The position numbers and the translations under genes are program-made. A DNA stretch of 43,637 nt. Origin: an uncultured Halomicronema sp. (lineage in GTDB: Bacteria > Cyanobacteriota > Cyanobacteriia > Phormidesmidales > Phormidesmidaceae). The DNA is taken from the NCBI GenBank assembly GCA_937899725.1, contig CALCCA010000013.1:1-43637 (forward strand). The letters run 5' to 3'. The notes under the pieces were generated by a model, which had not been told where the DNA came from, did not search any database, and was given only the letters and a program-made list of their open reading frames with translations. Shown piece by piece: positions 1-30,558 of the stretch (position 1 is its first letter; the number at the start of each line of letters is the position of its first letter).

Positions 1-240
1 CCTGGGCAATGCGTACCAGTCGTTGGGAGAGTACCAGCGGGCGATCACGTTTCACGAGCAACACAATGAGATAGCGCGCGCCATTGGAGACCGTGGTGGC
101 GAAGCGAATTCCCTCGGCTCCCTGGGCAATGCGTACCAGTCGTTAGGAGAGTACCAGCGGGCGATCACGTTTCACGAGCAATCTTTAGAGATAGCGCGCG
201 CCATTGGAGACCGCCATGGCGCGGCCCGGTCCCTAATCGC
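1..240 (+). repeat. 120-bp tandem TPR-coding repeats (left part)
   Basis: Units 1-120 and 121-240 each encode one 40-residue TPR. Their first 61 bases differ at a single position, while the second halves have diverged. The same unit occurs at 43457-43576 and begins again at 43577. The near-identity points to recent unit expansion or homogenisation. Confidence 0.9.
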
Positions 241-13186: not shown

Positions 13187-14878
13187 ATGGCTCCAATCAA
13201 TATAGAAGCTCAAAAAGTCCAAATTGAAACAATTCTTGAACAACGTTATTTCTCAATTATTCCGCAACTAGATCGGAATTGGACGTCTGAACAGCATAGA
13301 AAAAATCGCCTCAGTCGTTCCTTGGCGGCATTTGCTGTACAAAAGCTTGCTGATGTCACCCCAGCGCAAGCTGCAAACTCAGTGGTCAATGGAGAAAATG
13401 ATAATGGTATTGATGCAATTTTCTTTGATCGAATCCAGAATTGCCTTTGGCTAATTCAATCAAAGATAGGCAATGCACCTAATATGAGTGAAAACAAAAA
13501 ACTTTGCGATGGAGTTGAAGATCTTATAAATTCTCGCTTTGATAAATTTAATGAAAACTTTGTGCGTGTGCAAACAGATGTTGAAGCTGCATTGGCAACA
13601 AATGAACTAAAAATCATAGGATGTAATGTTCATTTAGGTGCAGAACTGGGAACTCATGCCATTAGTGACCTAAATCAGCTAAAAAATGACTTAAATCAGT
13701 TCTCTCAGCGATTTGACTGGAAAGATTTAGCGCTTTCAACAGTCCATCAATGGTTGACCGTCGAAAACTCAATCATCCCTCCTTCTGTAAATCTCAAGAT
13801 AAAAAATTGGTATGGACTGACCAATCCTAGAAAAGCTTTTTATGGTCTAGTTGATGCGCAACAACTTGCATGTCTATATCGGCAGCATGGCAAGGTACTT
13901 TTTGAAAAAAATATTCGTTACTACCTTGGTGAAGAAGACGTTAATAGTGCTATTTTAGGCACTGCTCAAGAACACCCAGAAGAGCTTTTCTATCTCAACA
14001 ATGGTCTCACAGCAGTTTGCTCTAAAGTCGATCCACTTCCAGGTGCAAACAATGACGAAGGTGACTTTACAATAGAGGGATTTTCGATTGTAAATGGAGC
14101 ACAGACTGTGGGATCTATTACAACACTTTTAAATAGCCAAGGATCTATTTCCGAAACAGCACAACTATTAATCACTCTAATTGAAATAGGTGCAGAGTCT
14201 GATGAACTAGGCAAGAAAATTACGCGCGCTAGAAATACCCAAAATACTATTCGGGATCTTTATTTTGCAGCGCTAGATTCTAATCAAGAACGATTGAGAC
14301 AAGAACTTGCCATATCAGGAGTAACTTATCAGTATCGTCCCTCTGAAACCTCAAATAACCAGGAATTAGTAACAATTGAACAAGTCATTTTAGCGCTTGC
14401 CTGTTTACAAGGCAATACTTCGATTGTTGTGACGGCGAAGAAAGAGATTGGCCAAATCTATCCCCAGTTTAAATCAGAAATTTTCAGCTCTAACTTGCAA
14501 GGATTAAAGCTTTACCGTTATGTTCAGATCTTCAAATACTTGGATCAGCTATTTTTAAATTCCGAACAATCTGAAACACAAACACGTCGAAAAACGTTTT
14601 ATCGGCATGGTCGCTTCTTTGTATTTCACATTCTTGCACGTCGTCATCAGCATTTGCTCAACAAGGTAGAGCTACAACTCTCGGATGCTGATAAGACTGC
14701 ACTTTCACGAGTTGCTTTAGAATTGGCTGAGTTGATCTACACAGTCGCGGAATCTGTATGCGACTCCAGTAAAGGATATCTTGCCATCTTTAGAAATCTG
14801 ACAGACTCTGAAATGTTAGCAAGAAGCGTAATGCAAGAACTTGAACAAAGGAACAATCCACAAAATGCAGTCACTTAA
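13187..14878 (+). CDS. AIPR-family (abortive infection phage resistance) protein
   Basis: 563 residues. The AIPR core is recognisable from EKNIRYYLGEEDVNSAIL, then PEELFYLNNGLTAVCSKV and FSIVNGAQTVGSI, followed by the sequence TRARNTQNTIRDLYFAALDS. The N-terminal third contains NDNGIDAIFFDRIQNCLWLI followed by QSKIG, which looks like a diverged PDDEXK-type motif (D...QSK). AIPR proteins are linked to abortive infection against phage; the biochemical activity is not settled. The gene is visibly more AT-rich than the helicase before it and the end of the methyltransferase after it, suggesting separate acquisition. It starts one base after the SNF2 stop and is followed by 45 bp before the methyltransferase. 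Confidence 0.88.
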   Translation: MAPINIEAQKVQIETILEQRYFSIIPQLDRNWTSEQHRKNRLSRSLAAFAVQKLADVTPAQAANSVVNGENDNGIDAIFFDRIQNCLWLIQSKIGNAPNMSENKKLCDGVEDLINSRFDKFNENFVRVQTDVEAALATNELKIIGCNVHLGAELGTHAISDLNQLKNDLNQFSQRFDWKDLALSTVHQWLTVENSIIPPSVNLKIKNWYGLTNPRKAFYGLVDAQQLACLYRQHGKVLFEKNIRYYLGEEDVNSAILGTAQEHPEELFYLNNGLTAVCSKVDPLPGANNDEGDFTIEGFSIVNGAQTVGSITTLLNSQGSISETAQLLITLIEIGAESDELGKKITRARNTQNTIRDLYFAALDSNQERLRQELAISGVTYQYRPSETSNNQELVTIEQVILALACLQGNTSIVVTAKKEIGQIYPQFKSEIFSSNLQGLKLYRYVQIFKYLDQLFLNSEQSETQTRRKTFYRHGRFFVFHILARRHQHLLNKVELQLSDADKTALSRVALELAELIYTVAESVCDSSKGYLAIFRNLTDSEMLARSVMQELEQRNNPQNAVT

Positions 14879-14923
14879 ATATTCAAAACTCAGTCTATCC
14901 GAAAAAATAACTAGTACAAGATA

Positions 14924-16591
14924 TTGGCTGTGAATAAGAAACAGAAACTCGAACTCACCTGGATTGGCAAAGAGCACCGGCCCAAGCTGGAGCCGCGCAT
15001 TTTGCTGGAAGACTCGGAGAAGTCGTACCATGCGGCGCATCGGGTGACAGAGAATGACCTGTTTAATAACCAGCTGATTTTTGGCGACAACCTGCTAGCG
15101 CTGAAGGCGTTGGAGGCTGATTTTGCGGGCAAAGTGAAGTGTGTATTTATTGATCCGCCCTACAACACAGGTAGCGCATTCGAGCATTACGATGATGGTC
15201 TAGAGCATTCCATTTGGCTGTCAATGATGCGAGATAGACTAGATATTATCCGCAAATTGTTGTCAGAAGACGGTTCGCTCTGGATCACTATTGATGATAA
15301 TGAGCATTCATATCTTCGGGTTTTATGCGATGAGATCTTTGGAAGAACTAATTTTATTTGTACAATCATATGGGAAAAAAGAAAAAGTAGAGAAAATAGA
15401 AGAGCTTTTTCCTTTAAGCATGATTTTATTCTCGTTTTTGCAAAAGATAAGTTTAAGTTTGAGAGCATAAGAAATCCGATTGAACTAAACCAGGAAGTAC
15501 TTAAGAGGTATAGGAACCCTGATGATGATTCACGAGGACTATGGCAGTCTGTTGCCATAACTGCACAAGCTGGGCACGGCACAGCTTCACAATTTTATGA
15601 AATCACCACTCCTGGAGGCCGGAAAATCAGCCCTCCATCCGGAAATTGCTGGCGCTTCACAGAGCCTCGTCTAGAAGAACTCATTGCCGACAATAGAATT
15701 TATTTTGGTGAGAGTGGTAATAATGTTCCACGACAGAAAAAATTCCTTCAGGAAAGTGAATCTACTGGCCTTACGCCTGAGACTATTTGGTATGCAGATG
15801 AGGTCGGAACCAATGACACGGCTAAGCGGCACTCCAATAATATTTTTAATGGCAACGGCTTCGATAATCCTAAGCCAGAAGAGCTTCTTGAACGCATAAT
15901 CAAAATTGCAACAAATTCGAGTGATCTAATCCTCGACTCCTTCGCTGGTTCCGGCACCACTGGCGCAGTCGCCCACAAAATGGGTCGCCGCTGGATCATG
16001 GTCGAACTTGGCGACCACTGCCATACCCACATCATCCCCCGCCTACAAAAAGTCATCGACGGCAACGACAAAGGCGGCATTACCGAAGCGGTCAACTGGC
16101 AAGGCGGCGGCGGCTTTCGCTACTACAAACTCGCCCCTTCCCTGCTTAAAAAAGACAAATGGGACCGATGGGTGATTAACCCTGAATACAACGCCGAAAT
16201 GCTGGCCGAAGCCCTCTGTAAGCTGGAAGGCTTTACCTACGTCCCTTCCGATATCGTCTACTGGCAACACGGCTACTCTACCGAGCGCGACTTTATCTAC
16301 GTCACCACCCAAAACCTCAGCCATGACCAACTGGCCCAGCTAGCCGACGAAGTGGGCACCGACCGTACTCTGCTAGTGCTGTGCATGGCCTTTCGGGGCA
16401 AACCCAACTTCTCTAACCTCACCATCAAAAAAATTCCTAAACACGTCCTCTATCGCTGCGAATGGGACCACGACGACTACAGCCTGCAAGTCGAAAATTT
16501 GCCAAAAGCTCCCCCGGAACCGCTTGAGGAAACTTCTGAGCCGCCAAGCCCTGCTGCTGCCGCCTCCGACCAGTTGAAGTTAGAGCTATGA
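14924..16591 (+). CDS. Beta-class site-specific DNA methyltransferase (type III Mod-like)
   Basis: 555 residues. Catalytic motif IV, VFIDPPYNTGSAFEHYDDG, comes before the AdoMet-binding motif I, LILDSFAGSGTTGAVAHKMG, the order of beta-class N6-adenine or N4-cytosine methyltransferases such as type III Mod subunits. Between them (about residues 110-310) lies the target recognition region. This stretch (about 15190-15900) is clearly AT-rich, whereas both flanks are GC-rich, a mosaic that suggests exchange of the specificity domain. The start is uncertain: TTG at 14924 or GTG at 14930, neither with a clear ribosome binding site. It should protect host DNA from the Res subunit at 17374-20085, which is separated from it by a toxin-antitoxin pair. 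Confidence 0.92.
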   Translation: MAVNKKQKLELTWIGKEHRPKLEPRILLEDSEKSYHAAHRVTENDLFNNQLIFGDNLLALKALEADFAGKVKCVFIDPPYNTGSAFEHYDDGLEHSIWLSMMRDRLDIIRKLLSEDGSLWITIDDNEHSYLRVLCDEIFGRTNFICTIIWEKRKSRENRRAFSFKHDFILVFAKDKFKFESIRNPIELNQEVLKRYRNPDDDSRGLWQSVAITAQAGHGTASQFYEITTPGGRKISPPSGNCWRFTEPRLEELIADNRIYFGESGNNVPRQKKFLQESESTGLTPETIWYADEVGTNDTAKRHSNNIFNGNGFDNPKPEELLERIIKIATNSSDLILDSFAGSGTTGAVAHKMGRRWIMVELGDHCHTHIIPRLQKVIDGNDKGGITEAVNWQGGGGFRYYKLAPSLLKKDKWDRWVINPEYNAEMLAEALCKLEGFTYVPSDIVYWQHGYSTERDFIYVTTQNLSHDQLAQLADEVGTDRTLLVLCMAFRGKPNFSNLTIKKIPKHVLYRCEWDHDDYSLQVENLPKAPPEPLEETSEPPSPAAAASDQLKLEL

Positions 16592-16638
16592 CCGAACCCG
16601 ATAGGTAACTCGTTTAGCCCCCCACTGAGGACATTTCC

Positions 16639-16893
16639 ATGACTAGCATCACCTTCAACCTTCCCGAAACTGTCTTTTCTGCCCTCCGCAAAACTCCCGA
16701 TGAGTTTGCCCAAGAGATGCGGGTGGCTGCCGCTGTCAAATGGTACGAGTTAGAGCAAATTTCCCAAGGTAAAGCCGCCGAAATCGCTGGCTTAACCCGT
16801 GCTGAATTCATCCAGGCCCTATCTCGCTACAAAGTCTCTCCCTTCCAATACACAGAAGCCGACTTGGTCAGAGAACTCAACCATGCCGATTAA
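16639..16893 (+). CDS. UPF0175-family antitoxin-like protein
   Basis: 84 residues. Opens TSITFNLPETVFSALRK and continues with AAAVKWYELEQISQGKAAEI and AGLTRAEFIQALSRY, a short DNA-binding fold typical of UPF0175 proteins, which are usually paired with a DUF3368 PIN-domain toxin. GAGG is about nine bases before the ATG. Its last 11 bases overlap the toxin gene, indicating coupled translation. Likely function: neutralises the toxin and autoregulates. It lies 47 bp after mod and is part of the restriction operon. Confidence 0.88.
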   Translation: MTSITFNLPETVFSALRKTPDEFAQEMRVAAAVKWYELEQISQGKAAEIAGLTRAEFIQALSRYKVSPFQYTEADLVRELNHAD

Positions 16894-17371
16894 GACTGTT
16901 GTAGTGAACTCATCCCCACTGATTACGCTCTACAACAGTCAGTTAGTAGACCTTCTGCCCCAACTCTTTGGCACCATCCAGGTCCCTCCGGCAGTGTGGC
17001 GAGAGGTCACGGCCTACAAAGCCGATGCAGCAGCTCAATCCCTGCCCCAATCGACTTGGGCCAGCCAAACCGGCACTGTTGCAATTCACCCCTCCATTGC
17101 CGCCTGGGATTTAGGCGCAGGGGAAACCGAGGTGCTGAGCTATGTCCTGGCACATCCTGACCATACCGCCATGATTGATGACGCCGCTGCCCGTCGCTGT
17201 GCGGTTAGTCTCAACATTTCCACCCTGGGGACAGCAGGCATGGTGGTATTGGCCAAGCGGCGGGGATTCATTTCTTCTATTGGTGAGCCACTTCAGGCAT
17301 TACGCAATGCCGGACTGTGGCTTGCAGACGACTTGGTGCAGCTCCTCAAAAAACAAGCAGGAGAAGAATAA
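16883..17371 (+). CDS. DUF3368 PIN-domain toxin
   Basis: 162 residues from the ATG at 16883, inside the last codons of the antitoxin. PIN-fold features: first acidic-site region VVVNSSPLITLYNS (the usual Asp is replaced by Asn, common in DUF3368), the Glu region WDLGAGETEVLSYVL, and Asp residues in AMIDDAAARRCAV. The C-terminal part, GTAGMVVLAKRRGFI, is the DUF3368 hallmark. PIN toxins are generally RNases. It ends two bases before the Res start, with the Res ribosome binding site (AGGAGAA) inside its last codons. A toxin-antitoxin pair locked between the protective and destructive subunits would penalise loss of the operon. Confidence 0.88.
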   Translation: MPIKTVVVNSSPLITLYNSQLVDLLPQLFGTIQVPPAVWREVTAYKADAAAQSLPQSTWASQTGTVAIHPSIAAWDLGAGETEVLSYVLAHPDHTAMIDDAAARRCAVSLNISTLGTAGMVVLAKRRGFISSIGEPLQALRNAGLWLADDLVQLLKKQAGEE

Positions 17372-17373
17372 CG

Positions 17374-20085
17374 ATGAACCGTCACGTAAACGCCATCGCC
17401 GGACGCCTGAGCTTACGCCCCCCCCAACGGGACTCACTGGAGATTCTCGATCGGATTTGCGAGATTGTGCTCCCCAAACATGGCATCGACCGCGAGGCCG
17501 CCCTGGCGACTATCAAAAGCGAATTTCCCACCGTTGCCAACTTTGAGCGCGACTTTCCGTCCCTGTGCTTTTCCTTGGCCACAGGGGTCGGCAAAACTCG
17601 GCTCATGGGAGCTTTTATCAGCTACCTGCATCTGGCCCACGGCATCAAAAATTTCTTTGTGCTGGCCCCTAACCTGACGATCTATAACAAACTGATTACC
17701 GACTTTACCCCCAACACCTCTAAATATGTGTTTAAGGGCATTTCTGAATTTGCCACCGATGCCCCGGAAATCATCACTGGCGACAACTATGAAATGCGGG
17801 CACGGACGCTCTTTGATGAGCTGATCCGCTGCAAAATCAATATTTTTAATATCTCAAAAATTAACTCCGAAGTGCGCGGCGGTAAAAGTCCTCGGATTAA
17901 ACGCCTGTCTGAATATATTGGTGAGAGCTACTTTGAATTTTTAGCGAATCTAGACGATCTAGTCATTCTGATGGATGAGTCGCACCGGTATCGGGCCTCT
18001 GCCGGGGTCAGGGCGATTAACGAACTCAAGCCGGTGCTGGGGCTAGAACTCACCGCCACCCCCTTCATCGAAACCAGTAAAGGGGCTATTCAGTTCCAAA
18101 ACGTGATTTATGACTATCCGTTGGGGCGGGCGATCGCCGATGGCTTTGTGAAAGACCCCGCCGTGGTCACTCGTCGAGACTTTAACCCAGCAGGTATGGC
18201 CCCAGAGGAAATCGAACAGCTCAAGCTGGAAGACGGCATTCGCCTGCACGAAAGCATCAAAGCCGAACTGATGACCTATGCCCGCGACACCACCCAACCT
18301 GTGGTTAAGCCCTTCGTACTGGTGATTGCCCGCGACACCACCCATGCCGCTCAGCTTTTAGAGCTCGTTGAAAGCGATCGCTTTTTTGACGGACGTTATG
18401 CTGGTAAAGCAATTCAGGTCGATTCCAGCACGACCGGCAAAAAAGAAGACGAGATGGTGGAGCGGTTGCTGAAAGTAGAAAGCACCGAAGAACCCACCGA
18501 AATCGTCATCCACGTCAACATGCTCAAAGAGGGGTGGGATGTCACTAACCTCTATACCATCGTGCCGCTGCGAGCGGCCAATGCCCGCATCTTAATTGAG
18601 CAATCCATCGGTCGAGGATTGCGCCTGCCCTACGGGAAACGCACTGGGGAACTCATTGTTGATCGGCTTAACATCATCGCCCACGACAAATTTCAAGAAA
18701 TCATTGATGAAGCGAACCTTTCTGACTCAGTGATTCGGCTCCAGCAGGTCATTCTAGAACCTGCGGATTTGGACAATAAGAAAGTGAGTGTTGCTGCCAA
18801 ACCCAACATTGCTAGTTTGTTAGGTCAACCACCACCGGAAGTTCCTGGCCTTGTCGAGGCTGCGGCGACGGGGGCTACTGAGGCAGTGCCCATGAGCGAG
18901 GAGAAGCCCCCAGCCTTCACCACGCCAGAAGAGCAGAAAATTGCTCAAATTACTTATGCGGTGATTCAAGAGTTGGAGAGCCAACCAGAGGTGGTGCCGA
19001 CGACGGCCCACCTGCAATCTGCGGCGGTGCAGAGCTTGGTCAGAGAAAGAGTCGAGGCTAAGTATCGACCCGAGCAGTTAGAGCTGGAAGGGGTCGTTCA
19101 GCAGCCCGATGTGGCGACGGTGATTACCAAAACCACCGACATCGTGATTCAGCAAACGATCGACATTCCCCGGATCTTGGTGGTGCCTACCGGGGTAGTC
19201 AAAACGGGCTTTCATTCTTTTGCCTTAGAGCTAGAAGGGTTGAACTATCAAGCCCCTTCTGAAGAGCTGTGGCAGCAAAGCCTTTCTACGGGCGAACGTG
19301 ACATTCTTGGGGTTGGGGCAGGGGGGATTCAGGAAGACCAGTTAGAAGACTATGTGGTCAGCGGGCTGATTGACTTTGACGACATCGCTTACGATGACCA
19401 TGCCGATTTGCTCTACGATCTGGCCGGACAGGTGGTGAACTATTTTCGAGAATTACCGCGAACGGAAGAGGAAATCCCTAAAATCCTGCGAGTTCACCAG
19501 CAAGAAATTGCTCGGTTCGTTCATGCCCAGATGCAGACCCATTTCTGGGAGAAGGCTGTCGATTATGACGTCAGGATCAGCCGAGGGTTTACTGCTCTCA
19601 AGGACAGTGCTTACACCGCCACCGATCAGACTCCGTTGAACTACCGCCAGGCTCCTGCGGAGATGAGCAGCCTCCGCAAGGTCTTGTTTGGCGGATTTTC
19701 TAAATGTCTATACCCTGTCCAAAAATTTGACAGTAACAGTGAGCGACTTTTAGCGGTGATTCTAGAGCGGGAAGCCCTGAAGTGGTTTCGTCCGGCTAAA
19801 GGGCAGTTTCAGATCTACTACCGCTGGAATGGTGAGCACCCTGAATATCAGCCCGATTTCGTCGCCGAAACTGATCACACAACTTACATGCTGGAACCCA
19901 AGATGAGCACCCAGATGACTGACCCACAGGTGCTAGCTAAAAAAGAGGTGGCGATGAAGTGGTGCCAACAAGCCTCTGACTATATGCAACAGCACGGCGG
20001 CAAGCCCTGGGTCTATGTGCTGATACCTCACGATGCGATCGCAGAAAATATGACACTTGAGGGGTTGGCCGAGCGGTTTGGTTAG
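17374..20085 (+). CDS. Res-type helicase-endonuclease subunit (type III-like)
   Basis: 903 residues from the ATG at 17374, two bases after the toxin stop, with AGGAGAA about eleven bases upstream. Superfamily 2 helicase motifs: Walker A LATGVGKTRLMGAFISY, DEAH-like box LVILMDESHRYRA, motif III LELTATPF, and motif VI IEQSIGRGLRLPYG. The C-terminus has a PDDEXK nuclease signature, YQPDFVAETDHTTYMLEPK (PD, then Glu-x-Lys), as in type III Res subunits. About residues 480-590 form a low-conservation, Pro/Glu-rich linker. It is the last gene of the operon and probably the cleaving subunit acting with the methyltransferase. The presence of a separate SNF2 helicase makes the set larger than a classical Mod-Res pair. 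Confidence 0.92.
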   Translation: MNRHVNAIAGRLSLRPPQRDSLEILDRICEIVLPKHGIDREAALATIKSEFPTVANFERDFPSLCFSLATGVGKTRLMGAFISYLHLAHGIKNFFVLAPNLTIYNKLITDFTPNTSKYVFKGISEFATDAPEIITGDNYEMRARTLFDELIRCKINIFNISKINSEVRGGKSPRIKRLSEYIGESYFEFLANLDDLVILMDESHRYRASAGVRAINELKPVLGLELTATPFIETSKGAIQFQNVIYDYPLGRAIADGFVKDPAVVTRRDFNPAGMAPEEIEQLKLEDGIRLHESIKAELMTYARDTTQPVVKPFVLVIARDTTHAAQLLELVESDRFFDGRYAGKAIQVDSSTTGKKEDEMVERLLKVESTEEPTEIVIHVNMLKEGWDVTNLYTIVPLRAANARILIEQSIGRGLRLPYGKRTGELIVDRLNIIAHDKFQEIIDEANLSDSVIRLQQVILEPADLDNKKVSVAAKPNIASLLGQPPPEVPGLVEAAATGATEAVPMSEEKPPAFTTPEEQKIAQITYAVIQELESQPEVVPTTAHLQSAAVQSLVRERVEAKYRPEQLELEGVVQQPDVATVITKTTDIVIQQTIDIPRILVVPTGVVKTGFHSFALELEGLNYQAPSEELWQQSLSTGERDILGVGAGGIQEDQLEDYVVSGLIDFDDIAYDDHADLLYDLAGQVVNYFRELPRTEEEIPKILRVHQQEIARFVHAQMQTHFWEKAVDYDVRISRGFTALKDSAYTATDQTPLNYRQAPAEMSSLRKVLFGGFSKCLYPVQKFDSNSERLLAVILEREALKWFRPAKGQFQIYYRWNGEHPEYQPDFVAETDHTTYMLEPKMSTQMTDPQVLAKKEVAMKWCQQASDYMQQHGGKPWVYVLIPHDAIAENMTLEGLAERFG

Positions 20086-20210
20086 TTTTGTACTTGAAGG
20101 GTCATCCCATTTGCTCTCTCCGTTGTTTTAGCAACTCAGTCTGGGGCGATCGCTAAGATTTGCCGTGATCGTCCCTCTGTTGCACCCTCCAAAGACTGCA
20201 ACGCTAGGAT

Positions 20211-20493
20211 TGTTGAGATTTTGGGGCTAGCTGCAACAAGCCGGAGCGCGGTATCACAGCGGTATCGCCCGACCACAGAGGACTCGACCGATGAAAATCA
20301 CCACACTTCCCACCACTCGCATCACCACCCGTCAACGCCGCCTGCGCGCGATCTCCCAACGCCTCGTCATCGAGCTGGGCTACCTCGAACACTGCTTAGG
20401 TGAAGGCCTGCAAGATGCCCACGTCCAGACCGCCGCTGCGGGCCTTGACACCGCCATTGACTGCCTGAATGAGCATCTGACCAGCTAAGCTGG
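20211..20493 (+). repeat. Duplicated small-protein cassette, copy A
   Basis: A unit made of an 80-bp leader, a 65-codon gene and a 3' hairpin (CCAGCT at 20481-20486, AGCTGG at 20488-20493). It matches copy B (25842-26132, opposite strand) at roughly 80 percent over the leader. The two copies bracket the mobilisation region as an inverted repeat. Confidence 0.75.
20291..20488 (+). CDS. Small conserved protein of unknown function, copy A
   Basis: 65 residues, basic N-terminus then two predicted helices: RQRRLRAISQRLVIELGYLE and HCLGEGLQDAHVQ, ending DTAIDCLNEHL. No family recognised. GAGGACTCGACC precedes the ATG in both copies. The protein is about 70 percent identical to the one at 25849-26052, and its 80-bp leader is also conserved, which supports a real and regulated gene. 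It follows the Res gene by about 200 bp and faces the mobilisation operon's end. Confidence 0.7.
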   Translation: MKITTLPTTRITTRQRRLRAISQRLVIELGYLEHCLGEGLQDAHVQTAAAGLDTAIDCLNEHLTS

Positions 20494-20505
20494 CTCACCC
20501 GATTT

Positions 20506-21132
20506 CTATTGAGTGCCGATCGCCCGTTCAATGCGCTCTAAGCGAATGAGCGTAGAGTTATGCAATCGCCTAAAATACCGAGTCTGCAAAAGGCTGAAAG
20601 CATTCAGCCCGAGTAAAACGCAGATAGAGACCGAGAGCACCCAAGTGTTAACGCTCCAGGTCTGCGGATCGGTACTGCCCTCGATCCGGCGAGCGGACTG
20701 AGCGAGCTGCTGTAGGGCGCTGTGGGTCTCCTGCCGCTCGCGGCTGGCCATCAATCGCCCGTCCTGCTGCGCCGTCGCGACCGCCTGCAAGAGCGTGCTC
20801 AATTTGGTGATTTGCTGCTGCGAGGCCGCGAACTGCGGTGGCAATTGCGCGTAAGTATGGCTCAAATTCGCCACCGCCTGGCCCAACCGCTCCGTCTCCT
20901 GCGTTTTCTGAGTCAACAGCTTGAGGAGTTCGAGAATCGTTTCGTTGTGGTAATTGAGCGTCTGCTGGCATTGGTTAACCGCCCGTGTATTTTCCATTAC
21001 CGCTCGAATGACCGGCAAATGCGCCTGAACCAGCACATCATCCGGGTCGAGCCCCATCGCTGCCGCTAGCTGCTGCTGTTCCGCTGAGCCCTCAGGCGGT
21101 GCAACCTGAAGCGGCTGAAACCCATTCGTCAT
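20506..21132 (-). CDS. Coiled-coil membrane-anchored protein of the mobilisation region
   Basis: 208 residues, no recognised family. Residues 1-60 are polar; 60-165 are Gln-rich heptad-like sequence suggesting a long coiled coil (TQKTQETERLGQAVANLSHT is an example); residues 165-185 (NTWVLSVSICVLLGLNAFSL) form a single membrane helix near the C-terminus, followed by a basic cytoplasmic tail. It overlaps the stop of the ParA-like gene by four bases, so the two are translationally coupled. By position it may tether the ATPase or relaxosome to the membrane, as accessory mobilisation proteins do; that is inference. Confidence 0.7.
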   Translation of the reverse strand: MTNGFQPLQVAPPEGSAEQQQLAAAMGLDPDDVLVQAHLPVIRAVMENTRAVNQCQQTLNYHNETILELLKLLTQKTQETERLGQAVANLSHTYAQLPPQFAASQQQITKLSTLLQAVATAQQDGRLMASRERQETHSALQQLAQSARRIEGSTDPQTWSVNTWVLSVSICVLLGLNAFSLLQTRYFRRLHNSTLIRLERIERAIGTQ

Positions 21133-21896
21133 GATGGCAACACCCCCGTCCGTTCAAATTCGCCGTACGCCTGAGCCAGGAATTTGCGCACCCCCGCCTG
21201 CTCCGTGATGCCGTAAGACTTGCCCTGATAAGTTCTCGCCTGGTCATAGGTCAGCCGCTGATTGAGAATCGTGCTGGCCAACCGGGCCGGGAGACGCGGT
21301 AAATCAATCACCTGACTGTGAGTTTCCTGAATGAGAGCAAGGACATCATCAGCCTCGTTGTAAAACGACCAATCGTCATACTTGCGATTCCGCACCACGA
21401 TATGAGGCACCGCAGTGCCGCAGGCCCGCAGCGAGTTGACCAGCGACCGCAGCGAATCGGCTTCCCCCGTCGTTACAAACCACTTAACCAGCCCAATCCG
21501 CTGCTCTGCTGCCAGCGTGAGGATATCGAACTTTGCGAGCCAGGCCTGAAACGGGTGATGGGCTCTGGCCGGTAGATTCACCACCACAGGCTGATGGGTC
21601 ATCGCCGCCTGATTCACGATGACGTTAGCGGCATCTTCCTGGCTCTGAGTTTCCGAAAACACCGTGCGCGCAATATCAGGATAGATATCCGAGAAATCAG
21701 GATTATCTTCAGGGTCAGTATCGAACCCTATGACTGGAACCTGGTGGTCGATAAACCATTGATAAAGGGTGCGAGCAACGAATGACTTGCCGACGCCTCC
21801 CTTATTACCATCAGCAAAATGAATGTAGGAAAGCAACGTTGAGTTTTCCCCTGACGTTGTTTTTCTAGAGGTGCGTTTTCCATCAATGATAGTCAT
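21129..21896 (-). CDS. ParA/MinD-like ATPase of the mobilisation operon
   Basis: 255 residues. After a 27-residue polar leader come a deviant Walker A, FADGNKGGVGKSFVARTLYQ, then VIGFDTDPEDNPDFSDIYPD (Walker A' region) and VVVNLPARAHHPF in the Walker B position, where the usual Asp is replaced (VNLPA rather than VDTPA). This fits MobD/TraL-type ParA relatives linked to mobilisation rather than a partition ParA. It sits between a small HTH protein upstream and a coiled-coil membrane protein downstream, all leftward. It likely positions the plasmid or relaxosome rather than segregating copies. Confidence 0.8.
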   Translation of the reverse strand: MTIIDGKRTSRKTTSGENSTLLSYIHFADGNKGGVGKSFVARTLYQWFIDHQVPVIGFDTDPEDNPDFSDIYPDIARTVFSETQSQEDAANVIVNQAAMTHQPVVVNLPARAHHPFQAWLAKFDILTLAAEQRIGLVKWFVTTGEADSLRSLVNSLRACGTAVPHIVVRNRKYDDWSFYNEADDVLALIQETHSQVIDLPRLPARLASTILNQRLTYDQARTYQGKSYGITEQAGVRKFLAQAYGEFERTGVLPS

Positions 21897-21909
21897 AGTC
21901 CCTCCTCAC

Positions 21910-22329
21910 CTAATAAGCGACTCGTATATGATCAAGATTGACTTCAGGCAAGACTTTTTCCTGACTTGTCGTATGGGATTGATCCATTGAAGAACCCGTG
22001 ATTGAGTTAGCCTGACCCGCCTGCTCAGATGGTTTTTTAGACCTGGATTTGCGTTTCGTTGACGTTTGCTTAACGTTTGCCTGACGTTGTTTTTGAATTC
22101 GCCGGAGATATTGCTTCAAGGTGCCAGCGGTAATCTCAATGCCATCGCCATTGAGCTGCTTTGCGACCTCCTCATAGGTGTGATGTTCTAGCGCCGCGAC
22201 GATGGTGTCATAGAGTGCTGCGGTGGCTGCAAACGTTGTAAACGTGGTGCGAGGCTGTTTTGCTAGCTCAGTCAAACCAGACAGGCAGTGCTCGACCTGG
22301 TCAGCGGAATAGAGTTTCTCTGCCATCAT
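21910..22329 (-). CDS. Small DNA-binding protein of the mobilisation operon
   Basis: 139 residues. Residues 1-85 are helical with a probable helix-turn-helix: HTYEEVAKQLNGDGIEITAG then TLKQYLRRIQKQR. Residues 86-139 are a basic, then polar tail (TSTKRKSRSKKPSEQ). GAGGG precedes the ATG. It is the first gene of the leftward mobilisation operon, next to the structured intergenic region, so it probably binds there as an accessory relaxosome protein or as operon regulator. The architecture (HTH, ParA-like ATPase, membrane coiled coil) resembles accessory sets beside MOB relaxases on small plasmids; no precise name can be given. Confidence 0.72.
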   Translation of the reverse strand: MMAEKLYSADQVEHCLSGLTELAKQPRTTFTTFAATAALYDTIVAALEHHTYEEVAKQLNGDGIEITAGTLKQYLRRIQKQRQANVKQTSTKRKSRSKKPSEQAGQANSITGSSMDQSHTTSQEKVLPEVNLDHIRVAY

Positions 22330-22738
22330 GGAGCCCTCACTATATGGTTTCCATCATGGAGAAAAAGATTCGATATGAGCAGTCATAAACACGTACTGTA
22401 ATAGAACGTGGATGATATTAGTCGCGTTCACTTGCCCTGATATCAAAGGATTGGCATAGAGCGATATGGGGTCGTTCTTATGAGTGACTAAAGTTGATTC
22501 ACGGCGGCGTTTCGCTATCGCGATGTGCCGCCTCATGGTGAGAGTAGCAAGCCAGAGAAAAAAGGACTTTTTTCATGGGCTTGCTGAGGGCACCTCAGAC
22601 TCCGCTGGCGTCAGATTCAGGTAAAGTTGTTGACCCTGAAACTGCTTTTTCATTCGGGCTAAGTAAATAAAGATTGCAATCGGAAGCACAGAAAAGATTG
22701 CCCTTGGCAGGATTAGGAAAAGAGTTGGGTTGTCCCGG
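22330..22738. promoter_or_regulatory. Divergent mobilisation intergenic region, candidate oriT
   Basis: 409 bp between the two mobilisation operons. It holds a hairpin with GGCGGC (22503-22508) and GCCGCC (22527-22532) containing a HIP1-like core, and a second strong hairpin with AGCAAGCC (22546-22553) and GGCTTGCT (22578-22585) enclosing AAAAAAGGACTTTTTT. Both outer genes read away from it, so a terminator is unnecessary there. Position between the accessory genes and mobC/relaxase is typical of oriT. The nick site cannot be named by eye. Confidence 0.5.
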
Positions 22739-23071
22739 ATGAAAGCGGATAAACGAGTCCACCAAATCAAAGTGCTGTTCAACGATGCCGAGTGGGAACA
22801 GCTGCTCGCGCTGTGCGAGACCTCAGGGTTGAAACCCGGCACCTATTGCCGTCTAAAAGCGCTGGAGCAGACCGCTCGCGTGGTGCCTGTGCTGCCCGAA
22901 GTCATGGGCCTGCGGGGTGACCTGGGCCGCTACGGGAATAACGTGAACCAGGTTGCGCGGAACCTCAATGCCGGGAACGTGATGGACACGGTGGATGCGC
23001 TGCGAGTAGAACAAAGCAATCGCTATGTGGGAGACCGGATTGCCGAGCTGTTAGCGCGGTTAGAGCCATGA
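22739..23071 (+). CDS. mobC: MobC-like relaxosome accessory protein
   Basis: 110 residues from the ATG at 22739; a TTG nine bases upstream is the alternative. RHH-like N-terminal half (VHQIKVLFNDAEWEQLLALC then GLKPGTYCRLKALE) and the MobC signature LRGDLGRYGNNVNQVARNLN. MobC proteins bind oriT and help the relaxase open the duplex at the nick. It overlaps the relaxase start by ATGA (23068-23071), so the two are coupled. Confidence 0.9.
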   Translation: MKADKRVHQIKVLFNDAEWEQLLALCETSGLKPGTYCRLKALEQTARVVPVLPEVMGLRGDLGRYGNNVNQVARNLNAGNVMDTVDALRVEQSNRYVGDRIAELLARLEP

Positions 23072-24270
23072 TTGGCAAGACCCATGTGGGTCGCGGTTTC
23101 TATGGCTGTTTTCGCTACGTGATGGGTGAAGACGAGCCGGAAAAAGCGGCTCATATTATTGGCGGTAATCTGGCCGGTCGGGATGCCAGAGAGCTGAGCA
23201 GTGAAGTGAGACTGTCCCGCCAGCGCCGCGCGGATATTGAGAAACCCGTGTGGCACGTCCCGCTCGCGTTCCATCCGGATGAGTCGCTCACCGATGCCCA
23301 GATGCAGGATGCCTGTCATCACTTTCTCAACACTTTTGGCGTCAACCGGGAGCATCATCAGTATTTGATAGTGCGCCATCATGACACTGCCCATGGGCAC
23401 GCGCACATCGTCGTGAATCGGATCTCAGATCGGGGTAAGCTGCTGGACTTGCACCGCGATCGGCCCCGCGTCAAAGCCGCTACCCGACAGGTGGAAAAAG
23501 ACCTGGGACTAAGGATCACCGTCGAAAAAGATGAGCCGTTTCAAGCAGACTTAAGAGCGACGATCTCGCAAACGGCGAGCGCGCATCCTCAACTCAACGA
23601 GTTCTGCCAGCAGCTTCAAGAGCAAGGCATCACGCCCCGCTTTGCCTACCGCAACGGCGTGCTGCACGGGCTGACTTATCGCTGTAATGGAATCGAAATT
23701 AGAGGCTCAAAACTGGGCAAAGAATATAGCTTTCCCGGACTGCAAAAACACCTGGGAGTGGAGTACGAGCCAGAGCGCGATGAGCCCGTCATTAAGGCGC
23801 ACTATGTGGAGCGTAAAGGTGCAAGAGCGAATGATGAGACGAAGGCCCAGTTACGCCAGCGCCTGGCCCAAACGGCTCAACCTGATCTGTCCCTATCGGA
23901 GTTCTGCCAGCGGTTAGCAGCGCAGGGCATCACGCCGCAATTTGGCCTCCGACGCGGCAAGCTGAGTGCGTTGAGCTATCACTATCAGGGCCAGCGCACC
24001 AGTGGGGCGCAGCTCGGAGATGCTTACACGTTCAAAGGGCTGCAGCAGGAGCTGGGAATTCGCTATCAGCCGGAGCGTGATGACCCGGTCGTGAAGGCCC
24101 GCTACACCCAACGAAAATCACCAGAGCCAGAGCAGCCTAGATTTGTTTCTGCACTCAATTCTGAGCCAGTATTAGCACCCCATCATCGTGATGCAGAGCG
24201 AGAACAACACACGCGCCAGCACCGCCAAAGAGCCAAACAGCGTTCACGGGGGATGGATCTCGAACTCTAA
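23068..24270 (+). CDS. mobA: MOB-family relaxase with duplicated C-terminal domain
   Basis: 400 residues. N-terminal HUH relaxase: Tyr-containing motif I in VGRGFYGCFRYVMG, motif III HHDTAHGHAHIVVNR at 104-118 with the metal-binding His residues, and RGKLLDLHRDR. It nicks oriT and carries the strand into the recipient. Residues 161-250 and 261-350 are a tandem duplication at exactly 100-residue spacing: LNEFCQQLQEQGITPRF in the first, LSEFCQRLAAQGITPQF in the second, each ending near PVIKAHYVERK or PVVKARYTQRK. These helical modules follow the catalytic domain in this relaxase type. No primase or helicase domain is present, so the plasmid looks mobilisable rather than self-transmissible unless the 32-35 kb operon helps. 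Confidence 0.92.
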   Translation: MIGKTHVGRGFYGCFRYVMGEDEPEKAAHIIGGNLAGRDARELSSEVRLSRQRRADIEKPVWHVPLAFHPDESLTDAQMQDACHHFLNTFGVNREHHQYLIVRHHDTAHGHAHIVVNRISDRGKLLDLHRDRPRVKAATRQVEKDLGLRITVEKDEPFQADLRATISQTASAHPQLNEFCQQLQEQGITPRFAYRNGVLHGLTYRCNGIEIRGSKLGKEYSFPGLQKHLGVEYEPERDEPVIKAHYVERKGARANDETKAQLRQRLAQTAQPDLSLSEFCQRLAAQGITPQFGLRRGKLSALSYHYQGQRTSGAQLGDAYTFKGLQQELGIRYQPERDDPVVKARYTQRKSPEPEQPRFVSALNSEPVLAPHHRDAEREQHTRQHRQRAKQRSRGMDLEL

Positions 24271-24912
24271 ACGCTCGCCACTGGGCAGCACCGGGGGATA
24301 TCTCTGTCAATTCAGGACAGGGGCGTGAGGAGTGGTCAGGGACATCCCCGGTGGCCGCCAGAGTGTAGCGTCAGGGCTGGCCCATCAAGCCCCAGCCTAC
24401 GGCTCCCTCCGGTCGGGCTTGATTCGAGATGAAAGGGTTGGAGAAAGAAAAGAATTGACTACACCATCATTTGCCACATCAATTCAATTGTCTGAATGGC
24501 CTCATCTCGCAGCTCGTATGCTTTGAAGCCAGGTTGGGTATTGCCATTTTGTAGACCACTACGATCGTGCATTCATGGCCTAACTGGCACATGTGGGAGC
24601 TGTTGCTACCAATCGAGGTGTTAGCCCAAGCTTGGTTCACGGTAGACAGAGAGACAGCAAAAAGCCTTGTTTTTGCGGGTTTACAGGATCTGAATAGCTG
24701 AGGTTTGTGCAACTATTCAATGTAAAAAGCCTTTAGCGTCAATGCTTTCAGCGATTCCGTAGTCCAAAGCGGATTTCTGGCCTAAATCACCAACTGTCAC
24801 ACTCGCTTCTGTCGTGTAAGAAGTCAATCACCTCACGACGTGGAGTCACTTCAACGAGCTTACGAAGAATGGCAGGGCCGCCGCCTGCGGATCGAGGCCT
24901 AAAAGACGTGGT
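24271..24912. other. Gene-poor 640-bp stretch after the relaxase
   Basis: No convincing gene. A hairpin with TCAAGCCC (24385-24392) and GGGCTTGA (24415-24422) may end relaxase transcription. A 37-codon minus-strand frame at 24459-24572 has protein-like composition but no ribosome binding site and is not called. Confidence 0.45.
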
Positions 24913-25623
24913 TCAGTTAGGAGTGGTAGTTTCAAGTAAAATCGTTCCTACAGCCTGCCGAATTTGACGAGCAAACTCCACGGGTGGAGAAGACAAGTTC
25001 TGTTGACTAATTTCATGAATCCGCCTGAAAAACTTCTGAATCTCTGAATCGTCTGGCGGCAAACGTGATTCTAAATACTCCTGATGTGCATCCCATCGTG
25101 TTTTCATATTCTTATTGAAAGGCGGTTTATAATACACACGCGCCAATTCAATAATCCAAACTTCATAAATATTTCTATCAATTAGACCTTTCTTATAAAA
25201 GAAGAACTCTTTGGTATACAAATCCCATAATCGGTACCACCAGAGGTCTTCATTCGATTGCTCGGTTTCATTTATATATTCATCTACAGCACCAACAATG
25301 GAATGATATTGAGCTGAACAATCTAAGATTACTGATGCTTGCACAGCTTTTCGTTGTATTTCAAGAGATCGTGCCGCTGCTTCTGTAGCTTGCTGTTCAA
25401 GTTCCAGGGATTTAGCCGTTGATTCCAGAGCCTTCCTTTGGAAATGCAACGACTCAACAACTCTCCCAAGCTGTCTCCATGCCAAAAAAATTCCTATTAG
25501 TGCTGCAAAACTAGCAGAAATACTAGCGACACTTTCCAAAACTGGAACAATACCGCTCTGGTTGCTTGGATTCGGCTGAACTTGGGCAATAAGGTGAAGA
25601 TTTTCTTGGGAATCAGTCAACAT
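24913..25623 (-). CDS. Membrane-anchored coiled-coil protein, function unknown
   Basis: 236 residues. One membrane helix at about 27-48 (LESVASISASFAALIGIFLA), then a coiled coil at about 50-95 built of repeated Leu-Glu-x-Gln-x-Lys/Ala patterns, and a C-terminal helical domain with many aromatics (WWYRLWDLYTKEFFFYKK). The layout resembles the DUF4760-like family of single-pass cytoplasmic proteins, but I am not sure of the match. Base composition is more AT-rich than the mobilisation genes. It lies between the relaxase and the copy B cassette and may be independent cargo. Confidence 0.65.
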   Translation of the reverse strand: MLTDSQENLHLIAQVQPNPSNQSGIVPVLESVASISASFAALIGIFLAWRQLGRVVESLHFQRKALESTAKSLELEQQATEAAARSLEIQRKAVQASVILDCSAQYHSIVGAVDEYINETEQSNEDLWWYRLWDLYTKEFFFYKKGLIDRNIYEVWIIELARVYYKPPFNKNMKTRWDAHQEYLESRLPPDDSEIQKFFRRIHEISQQNLSSPPVEFARQIRQAVGTILLETTTPN

Positions 25624-25841
25624 GTGTCTTGTGAAATGTGCTGGCTAATCGAAAACGATTTAGCCGTTTCGTATAAACCTCCACGTAACACTTCTGAATT
25701 CCGTACGCCAAATGTTAATTTTCTCTTTGGAGAAATTTGCGTGTAGCTGTAGCCGCTTGGAAATAAGCAACTCATCAACGTGTGGATCGATATCTATCTG
25801 TAGTGACCGCAACGTGGATTATGCACGGCTGCGTTCTGATG

Positions 25842-26132
25842 TGGCCAGCTAAGGTTGTGAGCTGGCCAGATGCTCATTCAAGCAGTAGATCGCGGTGTCA
25901 ATGCCTGCTGCTGTTTGCACATTGGCATCTTGCAAACCTTCAGCTAAACAGTGTTCCAGATAGCCCAGCTCAATCACGAGACGTTTCGCGGTCGCCCGTA
26001 GGCGGCGCTGACGGGCAGTTAAGCGGGTGGATAAGACGGCAGTGGTTTGCATTGGTCGAGTCCTCAGTTAGAAGGGCACACCGCAGTGATATCGCGCCTC
26101 CACTTGTTGCAACTAGCTCCAAATTCTCAACA
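25842..26132 (-). repeat. Duplicated small-protein cassette, copy B (inverted to copy A)
   Basis: Same order as copy A, read on the minus strand: conserved leader 26132-26053, gene 26052-25849, and a perfect 9-bp inverted repeat TGGCCAGCT (25842-25850) with AGCTGGCCA (25860-25868) at the 3' end. Confidence 0.75.
25849..26052 (-). CDS. Small conserved protein of unknown function, copy B
   Basis: 67 residues, paralogue of the protein at 20291-20488: RQRRLRATAKRLVIELGYLE, then HCLAEGLQDANVQTAAGIDT and CLNEHL. Preceded by GAGGACTCGACC as in copy A. The hairpin at its end overlaps the stop and probably terminates transcription. Unknown function; conservation of leader, frame and 3' hairpin after divergence argues for selection. 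Confidence 0.7.
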   Translation of the reverse strand: MQTTAVLSTRLTARQRRLRATAKRLVIELGYLEHCLAEGLQDANVQTAAGIDTAIYCLNEHLASSQP

Positions 26133-26387
26133 GGCCCGCTGTTACAAAGATTGAGTTGCCATACCATTGCTGGTGATCTGTCTGATGGCGTTTGGCATTG
26201 TCTGATTCGTCGGGATGGGAATCGCTCTACATCTTTGGCTGTGTGCCCTTGGTGGCCGGAATGACGCTGAAGCAGCTTGGTTCTGTGAGGGGAGCGAGGA
26301 AGCGGCTAGGTGGGTGACCTCTCGCTAACCAAAGACTACAAGCAGGGAAGTCTAACCCAAGCTTAAATCTTCTAATCACTCCTGATG

Positions 26388-29108: not shown

Positions 29109-29702
29109 ATGGAATATCCTTCAAGCAATACATCTGCCAGTTTGACTGCCGCCAGTCAGCAACATAAAGAAAAGCTGGCCGAATACTATCGGCTGTCTCT
29201 ATGTGGTGAATTATCTGACGAGGATGCTGAGAGGCTGGAATGGATTTACAAAGAGGCCGAGTCTGATCCTTGTCTAAATTTCTTCATTGAAGAAATTGAT
29301 TACTTGATAAATCACAGGCTTGACCTGCTTAATGCAAACCATCATCTGGAGTACGAAAACCAAAAGTCCTGGCTTCGAGAGCATCTTCAAGAAGTTCCTC
29401 TCGATGAAGATGATCGCAAAGAAATGCAGAAACTCCTTCGAGAGTTTAACTATTATAAAGGACCCATCGATGGTGTTATTGGAGTTCGTTCGACAGAAGC
29501 AATTCAGAAATTTCATCACGATGCTCAGCGTACGTTAGCTGAGAAAGGTTTTTATCATCAAGAAATCGATGGGATATTCGGGATGAGTTCAGTTGCTGCA
29601 GTTAAGCAATTTCAGAAGACGGAAAAACTCAAAGAAGATGGAGTGCTGGGGAGAGAGACATCTGTAAAGTTATGGACATCTAGGGGGTCAAATGAGCTAT
29701 AA
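29109..29702 (+). CDS. Peptidoglycan-binding-domain protein coupled to a sigma factor
   Basis: 197 residues. The N-terminal 95 residues are acidic and helical with no known domain (LSLCGELSDEDAERLEWIYK). Two C-terminal PG_binding_1-type repeats follow: LLREFNYYKGPIDGVIGVRS then AIQKFHHDA, and GFYHQEIDGIFGMSSVAAVK then QFQKTEKLKEDGVLG. No signal peptide, so it is likely cytoplasmic, unusual for this fold. Strong ribosome binding site (AAAGGAGAA). Its last 11 bases overlap the sigma-factor gene, so the products probably work together; an anti-sigma or sensing role is a possibility, not shown. Confidence 0.8.
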   Translation: MEYPSSNTSASLTAASQQHKEKLAEYYRLSLCGELSDEDAERLEWIYKEAESDPCLNFFIEEIDYLINHRLDLLNANHHLEYENQKSWLREHLQEVPLDEDDRKEMQKLLREFNYYKGPIDGVIGVRSTEAIQKFHHDAQRTLAEKGFYHQEIDGIFGMSSVAAVKQFQKTEKLKEDGVLGRETSVKLWTSRGSNEL

Positions 29703-30558
29703 GTTCAAAGTTCGTTTCAATAGCGAATTTAAAAACATTGAAGAGTTTAATGCTTGGATCAAAGATTCATTGGCTCGCCACGAAGTAAATGAAAAGTATA
29801 CGCTCGATCTAATCATTTCCTGCATTTCTCAGGACTGCAACGTTTTTCAGGCGGCTTCCCAAGCTTCTGATGTGGAAGTTGCGCTCTTGAAGACTACATT
29901 CCTGGAGATCATTGATTACATCAAGCGAAACTCAAGATCTGATAAAGAACGAAATCGCCGGAAATTTGATCAGGCTATTCAATCGTTGTTTGATGGGTCT
30001 AATGAGAATGCCTCAAACTTTTTCGCTTCGATTACTCGACAGCTTTATCAATTTGGTCTGGGTAGAACCTATGACGCGAAAGAGATAATTGCAGAGGCAT
30101 ATGCCCGAGGCGTCAAAAGCATCAACTCTGGCAACAATATCCATAATCCTTTGGGGTGGGTGCGAAGAACTGCTCTATACGTTATACGAGAGTTCAAACG
30201 TGAGCAGCAAAGGGCCGATAATCCAAAAATTGTCAGGTTACCTTGGTCTCCTGGTGGCATTGTCTTTTCAGAGTTGATGCTTGAAGAAGATTTCCTGACT
30301 GTACAGACTGCGGTACAGCAGTTGAGTACAGAAGAGCAGGAGATCCTCTCTCAAAGAATCATCGAAGACCTTTCTTGGAAAGAGATTGGGCAAAACCTCC
30401 TTGATTCTGAGGGTAACCCTCTCAAGGAGGGGACAGCCCGACAACGTGGGGCTCGGAGTCTGAATAAATTACGGCAGCTCTATGAGGATCTCCGCGAGGA
30501 CATCCAGATGCCTAATGACCTTGACTTTTCTGAGCCAGATGCTGCTGATGGCGCATAG
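29692..30558 (+). CDS. Sigma-70-family RNA polymerase sigma factor-like protein
   Basis: 288 residues. Region 2-like helices at about 100-170 (ITRQLYQFGLGRTYDAKEII, then NPLGWVRRTALYVIREFKRE) and a region 4 HTH at about 205-265 (LSTEEQEILSQRIIEDLSWK followed by EIGQNL, and EGTARQRGARSLNKLRQLYE). This is the two-domain plan of ECF-type sigma factors, with an extra N-terminal 95 residues. It probably directs RNA polymerase to plasmid or host promoters in response to a signal handled by the overlapping peptidoglycan-binding protein. Divergence is high, so a non-sigma DNA-binding role cannot be excluded. A strong terminator follows. Confidence 0.75.
   Translation: MSYKFKVRFNSEFKNIEEFNAWIKDSLARHEVNEKYTLDLIISCISQDCNVFQAASQASDVEVALLKTTFLEIIDYIKRNSRSDKERNRRKFDQAIQSLFDGSNENASNFFASITRQLYQFGLGRTYDAKEIIAEAYARGVKSINSGNNIHNPLGWVRRTALYVIREFKREQQRADNPKIVRLPWSPGGIVFSELMLEEDFLTVQTAVQQLSTEEQEILSQRIIEDLSWKEIGQNLLDSEGNPLKEGTARQRGARSLNKLRQLYEDLREDIQMPNDLDFSEPDAADGA

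What the first reader, a model, noticed from the sequence alone, without database searches (positions are those of the whole stretch)
20211..26132. Inverted duplicate of an unknown small-protein cassette brackets the mobilisation region
Copies A (20211-20493) and B (25842-26132) share an 80-bp leader, a 65-67 codon gene and a 3' hairpin, on opposite strands about 5.4 kb apart, enclosing the whole relaxase/ATPase region. Leader conservation equals or exceeds that of the protein, hinting at a regulatory RNA or protein-binding leader. Recombination between the copies would invert the mobilisation region.
Basis: partly seen in the sequence, partly recalled or inferred. Interest (0 to 1): 0.6.

Follow-up and report, generated by a model that had tools for sequence, protein, structure and literature searches.

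The report
Multicopy small-protein gene with conserved promoter
Two copies of a short cyanobacterial gene of unknown function, each with its own conserved switch region, sit on one probable plasmid, and they belong to a gene family scattered over the genomes of a few related cyanobacteria rather than forming an invertible pair around the plasmid's transfer genes.

Summary
In detail: copies A (20211-20493, +) and B (25842-26132, -) share a leader and a 65/67-codon gene. They are not a local inverted duplicate. Both belong to a multicopy orphan family: 38 full-length copies (one with an internal stop) in 11 of 63 genomes of the order, 1 to 8 matches per genome. A and B are no closer to each other than to copies in other genomes (dS about 1.3; A's leader 70% identical to B's, 81-83% to its best foreign matches), and their longest exact match is 14 bp, so recombinational inversion is unlikely. 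The transfer-gene module between them recurs in another genome on a contig without a copy.

The leader is real and gene-specific: 32 of 38 copies carry it, and the strict element TGCAACA-N13-TATCAC gave 29 hits in the 11 genomes, 26 at intact family genes and 3 at remnants. Fixed spacing with a variable spacer points to a DNA promoter/operator; a weak RNA hairpin is not excluded. The protein is under purifying selection and predicted as a two-helix hairpin without known relatives. Its function is inferred, not shown.

The parts
20179..20202 (+). Copy A, upstream inverted repeat 1: GTTGCA-N12-TGCAAC
   Evidence: GTTG stands 17-19 nt before this TGCAAC position in 23 of 31 aligned leaders; 16 of 31 have both GTTG and CAAC there.
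20212..20237 (+). Copy A, inverted repeat 2: GTTGAG-N14-TGCAAC
   Evidence: the GTTGA and TGCAACA blocks are among the most conserved columns of the leader.
20232..20257 (+). Copy A, core promoter-like element TGCAACA-N13-TATCAC
   Evidence: 57-61 nt upstream of the ATG in 29 of 31 copies measured.
20277..20282 (+). Copy A, Shine-Dalgarno-like AGAGGA
   Evidence: Read from the sequence; similar purine-rich sequence shortly before the ATG in many copies.
20291..20488 (+). Copy A, 65-aa small-protein gene (orphan family, predicted two-helix hairpin)
   Evidence: dN 0.07 against dS 1.31 with copy B.
20481..20493 (+). Copy A, short inverted repeat across the stop codon; not a recognised terminator and not general in the family
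26106..26131 (-). Copy B, inverted repeat 2 (repeat 1 is not recognisable in this copy)
26086..26111 (-). Copy B, core promoter-like element TGCAACA-N13-TATCAC
26061..26065 (-). Copy B, Shine-Dalgarno-like GAGGA
   Evidence: Read from the sequence.
25849..26052 (-). Copy B, 67-aa small-protein gene
25842..25868 (-). Copy B, 9-bp-stem hairpin around the stop codon
20506..24270 (.). Not part of the cassette: mobilisation module between the copies (208-aa protein, ParA/TraL-like ATPase, 139-aa protein, NikA-like protein, MobA/VirD2-like relaxase)
   Evidence: same order and relative orientation in genome G012 contig C9, where no family copy was found.

Best explanation
A and B are two separate members of a lineage-restricted, multicopy gene family. 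Each is a self-contained transcription unit: a DNA operator array (GTTGCA/TGCAAC inverted repeats) leading into a core promoter element (TGCAACA-N13-TATCAC), a short 5' UTR with a Shine-Dalgarno sequence, and one gene for a roughly 65-aa helical-hairpin protein. Shown by sequence: the unit, its gene-specificity, its fixed geometry, purifying selection on the protein, and the lack of a special A-B relationship. Inferred: that the leader acts as DNA (promoter plus regulator or alternative-sigma site) so that all leader-bearing copies answer to one host factor; that the protein acts as a homodimeric helical bundle whose basic first helix contacts a nucleic acid or an acidic partner; and that it is a small regulatory accessory protein, because the leaderless copies lie in mobile-element-like operons 0.2-1 kb behind putative HTH genes. 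That the copies flank the mobilisation genes is most likely coincidence.
For: Family: 38 full-length copies (one with an internal stop) in 11 of 63 genomes of the order, 4 of 14 genera. A phylum sample of 386 genomes gave hits only in the window's own genome and one other of its genus. Leader: 32 of 38 copies, 31 of them in one gap-free register. The strict element gave 29 hits in the 11 family-bearing genomes (none in G015), 26 at intact genes and 3 at remnants; 6 hits in the other 45 genomes; 4 reversed-control hits in all 56. Conservation peaks in GTTGA, TGCAACA and TATCAC while the 13-nt spacer varies. No Rfam match. Protein: median dN/dS 0.13 over the 290 pairs with computable dS below 3; two-helix hairpin, pLDDT 88. 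Independence of A and B. Module without copies. Six of six leaderless copies in genomes have a CL12 or CL17 gene upstream on the same strand.
Against: No transcript, start site or binding protein is known; the sigma-70 scan called no promoter at either leader. A conserved RNA hairpin inside the leader is not excluded: the 18-row alifold (-2.9 kcal/mol) was reached by 1 of 200 column shuffles and 5 of 1000, and two pairs of a small 3-bp helix show both-side changes in 2 and 3 of 18 rows; dyad symmetry of a protein site would also give the main helix. The HTH call in the leaderless loci is weak (HTH_23 E 0.008, below the cut-off). The family's rules rest on 11 genomes. Several copies lie next to DUF4278, psbA or psb34 genes, which fits a stress role rather than a mobile-element role.
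Confidence: 0.7

Rival explanations
1. The leader is a regulatory RNA (attenuator or riboswitch-like) whose alternating GTTGCA/TGCAAC segments form mutually exclusive hairpins.
For: Segments 1-2, 2-3 and 3-4 can pair in alternation. Alifold of 18 rows pairs segments 2 and 3, -2.9 kcal/mol; only 5 of 1000 column shuffles are as low (1 of 200). Both-side changes in 2 and 3 of 18 rows at two pairs of a separate 3-bp helix.
Against: No both-side change in the main five-pair helix in 18 rows; over all 31 rows its pairs hold in 61-87% and alifold predicts no structure. No Rfam match in the window or, at gathering score, in eight related loci except a tRNA. The best-conserved block is a fixed-spacing bipartite element with a variable spacer.
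Confidence: 0.13
2. The core element is an alternative-sigma (ECF-like) promoter: TGCAAC as -35, N16, TCAC as -10; the family is a dedicated output of one stress sigma factor.
For: CAAC-type -35 with a constant spacer; TGCAAC stands in the -35 position of two predicted Streptomyces sigma-E target promoters listed in PMC6767563 (passages). The window plasmid itself carries an ECF-like sigma gene at 29692-30558.
Against: That sigma's relatives do not follow the leader: no match at E 1e-8 in G001, G005, G021 and G027, which have the leader, and matches in genomes without the family. No strict element was found in front of any other gene in the family-bearing genomes. The upstream inverted repeats are unexplained.
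Confidence: 0.2
3. Stress protein of photosynthesis: the gene is a light- or nutrient-stress effector co-located with DUF4278, psbA and psb34 genes.
For: 6 of 33 intact copies in 7 genomes (the diverged G012C3 counted) have a DUF4278 gene within 2.5 kb downstream on the same strand, against 57 such genes in about 47 Mb. A psbA start lies near G001C1 and a similar stretch near G004C362; Psb34 (NF033486, E 4e-26) near G005C1b and, by similarity, G004C138.
Against: Several of these loci are related by descent or segment duplication, so independent cases are few. I noticed no such neighbour beside either window copy in the ORF list, but did not scan all window ORFs against Pfam.
Confidence: 0.3
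4. A and B are a recent inverted duplicate and recombine to invert the mobilisation region.
For: Opposite orientation, 77% identity.
Against: Longest exact match 14 bp, below the usual minimum for RecA-type recombination (recalled); dS about 1.3; A and B are not supported sisters in a tree with few columns; the module exists without copies. Orientation of copies sharing a contig elsewhere is mixed.
Confidence: 0.03
5. The leader-gene unit is itself a small mobile element (integron-cassette- or MITE-like).
For: Dispersed solo copies, decayed remnants and one leader-only fragment joined to part of a neighbouring gene family.
Against: Apart from G005C1a/b (93%), which also share their downstream segment, the pairs printed show no cassettes above about 85%; G001C9/G004C78 are syntenic over kilobases. 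Common ends and empty sites were not searched for.
Confidence: 0.12

Closest known systems
DUF4278 (PF14105) small proteins, N-terminal part of the glutamine synthetase inactivating factor IF17
   Same: Small cyanobacterial proteins in several copies per genome; some have their own conserved regulatory leader (glutamine riboswitch, PMC6316151, passages); neighbours of some members of this family.
   Different: No sequence relationship found; no glnA-type riboswitch or other cis-regulatory Rfam family at gathering score in the eight loci examined or the window.
Rop/Rom and similar two-helix plasmid regulators (recalled); SSV1 D-63 (1skv)
   Same: About 60-65 aa, helical hairpin, plausible four-helix dimer; 1skv aligns at Z 7.9, rmsd 1.3 over 56 residues.
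   Different: Such a Z means little for helical hairpins (note); no sequence match; this family has its own long promoter region and members far outside the window's plasmid.
ECF-sigma-type promoters (Streptomyces sigma-E targets, PMC6767563, passages)
   Same: AAC-containing -35, fixed spacer, short -10.
   Different: The -10 TATCAC/TCAC differs from the CGTC type; upstream inverted repeats are extra; no sigma partner identified.

Membership tests
cis-regulatory RNA (Rfam-type leader) | Match to a curated family at its gathering score | tested here: not met
   Window: 0 matches; eight related loci: only a tRNA; window 20100-26300 at E up to 5: 0.
cis-regulatory RNA (Rfam-type leader) | Compensatory base changes in the stems | tested here: inconclusive
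   Main helix: 0 both-side changes in 18 rows; a 3-bp helix: both-side changes in 2 and 3 rows at two pairs; 31-row alifold gives no structure.
DUF4278 / IF17 | Pfam PF14105 match of the small protein | tested here: not met
   PF14105 is not among the 8 families listed for the 28 members scanned at E up to 5.
Invertible element bounded by homologous repeats | Long identical inverted arms | tested here: not met
   Longest exact match 14 bp; 77% over 278 bp.
Invertible element bounded by homologous repeats | Both orientations observed | not testable with these tools
   No reads were available.
ECF-dependent promoter | AAC-type -35 and -10 at 16-17 bp, recognised by a cognate sigma | tested here: inconclusive
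   Geometry fits; the plasmid's own sigma does not follow the leader's distribution.
Rop-like regulator | Antiparallel four-helix homodimer that binds paired RNA loops | tested here: inconclusive
   Monomer hairpin predicted; dimer and RNA binding not tested; structural matches not distinctive.
Known anti-phage defence or phage protein families | PADLOC or PHROGs profile match | tested here: not met
   Only scattered weak matches, best E 0.015, each in 1 to 4 of 28 members.

The most novel reading that the evidence does not exclude
A small regulator first carried in operons of conjugative and phage-like elements has been amplified by the host lineage into stand-alone promoter-gene units on chromosomes and plasmids, all wired to one trans-acting factor, so that host stress state and mobile-element regulators exchange signals through a shared pool of interchangeable helical-hairpin subunits. 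One relative in a virus-collection contig (L192; 52% over 48 residues, no TGCAACA leader in the stretch read, behind HTH-like genes with PHROG matches) fits this.
Probability: 0.12. Interest if true: 0.6.

Novelty: new member of a known kind. Interest (0 to 1): 0.36.

Why it matters
It adds a taxonomically narrow but multicopy gene family, without a match in the libraries searched, that has an unusually well conserved and gene-specific promoter region. That gives a ready handle for finding its regulator and asking why a cyanobacterial lineage keeps up to eight copies spread over its genome. It also corrects a tempting reading: two family members around a mobilisation region are not an inversion switch.

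Tried and rejected
Recent duplicate and inversion switch: rejected on dS, leader identities, exact-match length and the copy-free module. Riboswitch or attenuator: disfavoured, not excluded. Glutamine riboswitch near the DUF4278 genes: none at the gathering score in eight loci. Known protein families: Pfam (best E 0.0025, in 2 of 28 members), NCBIfam, PHROGs, PADLOC and PDB sequence search gave only weak, scattered matches. Structure search: Foldseek had no match at E 0.001 or better; VIA-align gave many helical hairpins at Z about 8, not informative. Plasmid and phage record collections: no match. A wider profile with the L192 and G012C3 relatives gave weak hits in 6 genomes outside the family-level group (best E 8.7e-4, not examined further) and no further viral locus. 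The inverted-repeat pattern GTTGCA-N12-14-TGCAAC is not specific: 42 of 56 genomes have it, 102 sites against 70 for the reversed control. The plasmid's own sigma factor as the leader's partner: distribution does not fit. Literature: searches (listings) and passages of four papers named no such family; it has no name to search by, so absence from print was not established.
Full report
WHAT WAS CLAIMED.

OBSERVATION. The inverted similarity is there at the stated places. The genes are 65 and 67 aa. BLASTN joins the copies at 77% over 278 bp, ending at about the stop. The 3' hairpins exist in A and B, but only 6 of the other 36 copies fold to -12 kcal/mol or lower around the stop, and no terminator was called there.

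A FAMILY, NOT A PAIR. The window's genome has three copies: the two in the window and one on contig C48. A protein search of 95 genomes found copies in 11. A profile search of 63 genomes of the order again found 11 genomes in 4 of 14 genera, all of one family-level group, with 1 to 8 matches each. A phylum sample of 386 genomes gave hits only in the window's own genome and one other of its genus. A wider profile over 388 genomes of the class added weak hits in 6 genomes outside the group, best E 8.7e-4. Named relatives include Oscillatoria sp. CS-180, Leptolyngbya sp. SIOISBB and Halomicronema sp. CCY15110. I studied 38 full-length copies, one with an internal stop (G005C1d). A further diverged copy (G012C3), broken remnants (G001C1x, G012C2x, G001C3, G004C372), a leader-only fragment (G005C2x) and a copy cut by a contig end (G002:C513) also exist.

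THE LEADER. 32 of 38 copies carry it. In 31 it lies in one gap-free register; TGCAACA stands 57-61 nt before the ATG in 29 of them (in the other two the script had taken a different start). The usual layout is GTTGCA-N11-13-TGCAAC, then GTTG(AG/CA)-N14-TGCAAC, then A-N13-TATCAC, then a Shine-Dalgarno-like sequence and the ATG; the first repeat is the least constant (GTTG in place in 23 of 31, GTTG and CAAC both in 16). Information peaks in GTTGA, TGCAACA and TATCAC; the 13-nt spacer varies in sequence but not in length. Among 17 copies of the window's leader type, mean pair identity is 0.74 (mid) and 0.71 (proximal), 0.31 further upstream, and 0.25 in a control stretch beyond that; codon positions 1/2/3 are 0.80/0.91/0.51 and aa 0.78. 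The strict element was sought in 56 genomes: 29 hits in the 11 family-bearing genomes (none in G015), 26 at intact family genes and 3 at remnants; 6 hits in the 45 others; 4 hits of the reversed control in all. No other gene in the family-bearing genomes has the strict element. A conserved bipartite element with a fixed, freely varying spacer is what a promoter or protein site looks like.

RNA OR DNA. No Rfam match. The 18-row alignment folds at -2.9 kcal/mol, reached by 1 of 200 and 5 of 1000 column shuffles, so complementarity is more than chance; but its main five-pair helix has no both-side change in 18 rows, and over all 31 rows its pairs hold in 61-87% and no structure is predicted. A separate 3-bp helix has both-side changes in 2 and 3 of 18 rows at two pairs. 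Dyad symmetry of a protein site would explain the main helix equally well.

THE PROTEIN. dN is 0.074 and dS 1.31 between A and B; the median ratio is 0.13 over the 290 pairs with computable dS below 3. AlphaFold gives two helices, 8-37 and 43-64, pLDDT 88, pTM 0.68. Profile libraries, PDB sequences and structure search gave no convincing relative. Conserved basic residues lie early in helix 1 (R16, R17, K23); that they contact a nucleic acid is inference.

A AND B ARE NOT SPECIAL TO EACH OTHER. A's leader is closest to G012C6a (83%), G003C40a and G002C907 (81%), against 70% with B; core-gene identities of A to G003C40a (0.80) and to B (0.79) are equal. The tree does not support them as sisters, but has few columns; by path length B is A's nearest row. 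B shares its upstream DUF1353-gene context with copy G005C2a (80% aa; 85% nt). The longest exact A-B match is 14 bp.

THE REGION BETWEEN. The five genes 20506-24270 (208-aa protein, ParA/TraL-like, 139-aa protein, NikA-like, MobA/VirD2-like relaxase) recur in the same order and relative orientation on G012 contig C9 (38.6 kb), 28-63% identical. No family gene was found on C9 and no strict leader element in its first 20 kb. So the copies are not part of the module. Orientation of copies that share a contig elsewhere is mixed.

OTHER CONTEXTS. Six of 38 copies lack the leader. All six have a CL12 or CL17 gene 0.2-1 kb upstream on the same strand; CL12 looks like an HTH protein only weakly (HTH_23 E 0.008, below cut-off), CL17 by eye. 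Downstream lie a P-loop protein and others below Pfam cut-offs; that these are transfer operons is inference. A 52% relative without the leader lies in a 45-kb virus-collection contig behind HTH-like genes, one with strong PHROG matches of unknown function. Of the intact copies in 7 genomes, 6 of 33 have a DUF4278 gene within 2.5 kb downstream; 9 of 38 loci hold a secreted-looking repeat protein (CL2); a few are near psbA, psb34 or a GvpL/GvpF gene. Several of these loci share descent, so the link to light stress is suggestive only. DUF4278 proteins are known to go with glutamine riboswitches (PMC6316151, passages; see also PMC11288750, passages), but none was found here.

VERDICT. A real multicopy small-protein family without a match in the libraries searched, whose members mostly carry a conserved promoter/operator; the pair around the mobilisation genes is most likely coincidental. 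Function and regulator remain to be found.

Noticed in passing
window 1-301 and 43457-43637: The window's two ends share 181 bp at 98% identity, with a further 66% copy at 121-301; suggests a circular plasmid or a terminal tandem repeat.
   Followed up: no
window 29692-30558: ECF-like sigma factor gene on the plasmid (matches below curated cut-offs); its relatives are scattered and do not follow the leader.
   Followed up: partly
window 13187-20085: Probable restriction-modification region: ResIII-type protein 17317-20085, DNA methylase-like ORF 14924-16591 and two small ORFs between them (read, not tested).
   Followed up: no
L172 (G005:C2 near 327113): A bare leader fragment without its gene, joined directly to part of a CL5-family gene; a trace of a deletion or recombination event.
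   Followed up: partly
G062, G070, G072, G018: A near-identical palindrome GTTGCAAA(A/C)...TTTGCAAC recurs at several places in other cyanobacterial genomes; looks like a separate dispersed repeat.
   Followed up: no
loci G003C40a, G003C41, G003C45, G012C4a, G012C6a, G002C907, G001C1, G004C138, G005C1b: Secreted-looking protein with repeats of FDELRRENLDKDAV near nine family copies; only a weak NCBIfam match (penta_MxKDx, E 2e-6, below cut-off).
   Followed up: partly
window 5603-5737/39643-39777 and 1056-1107/4384-4435: Other dispersed repeats in the window (87% direct, 88% inverted).
   Followed up: no
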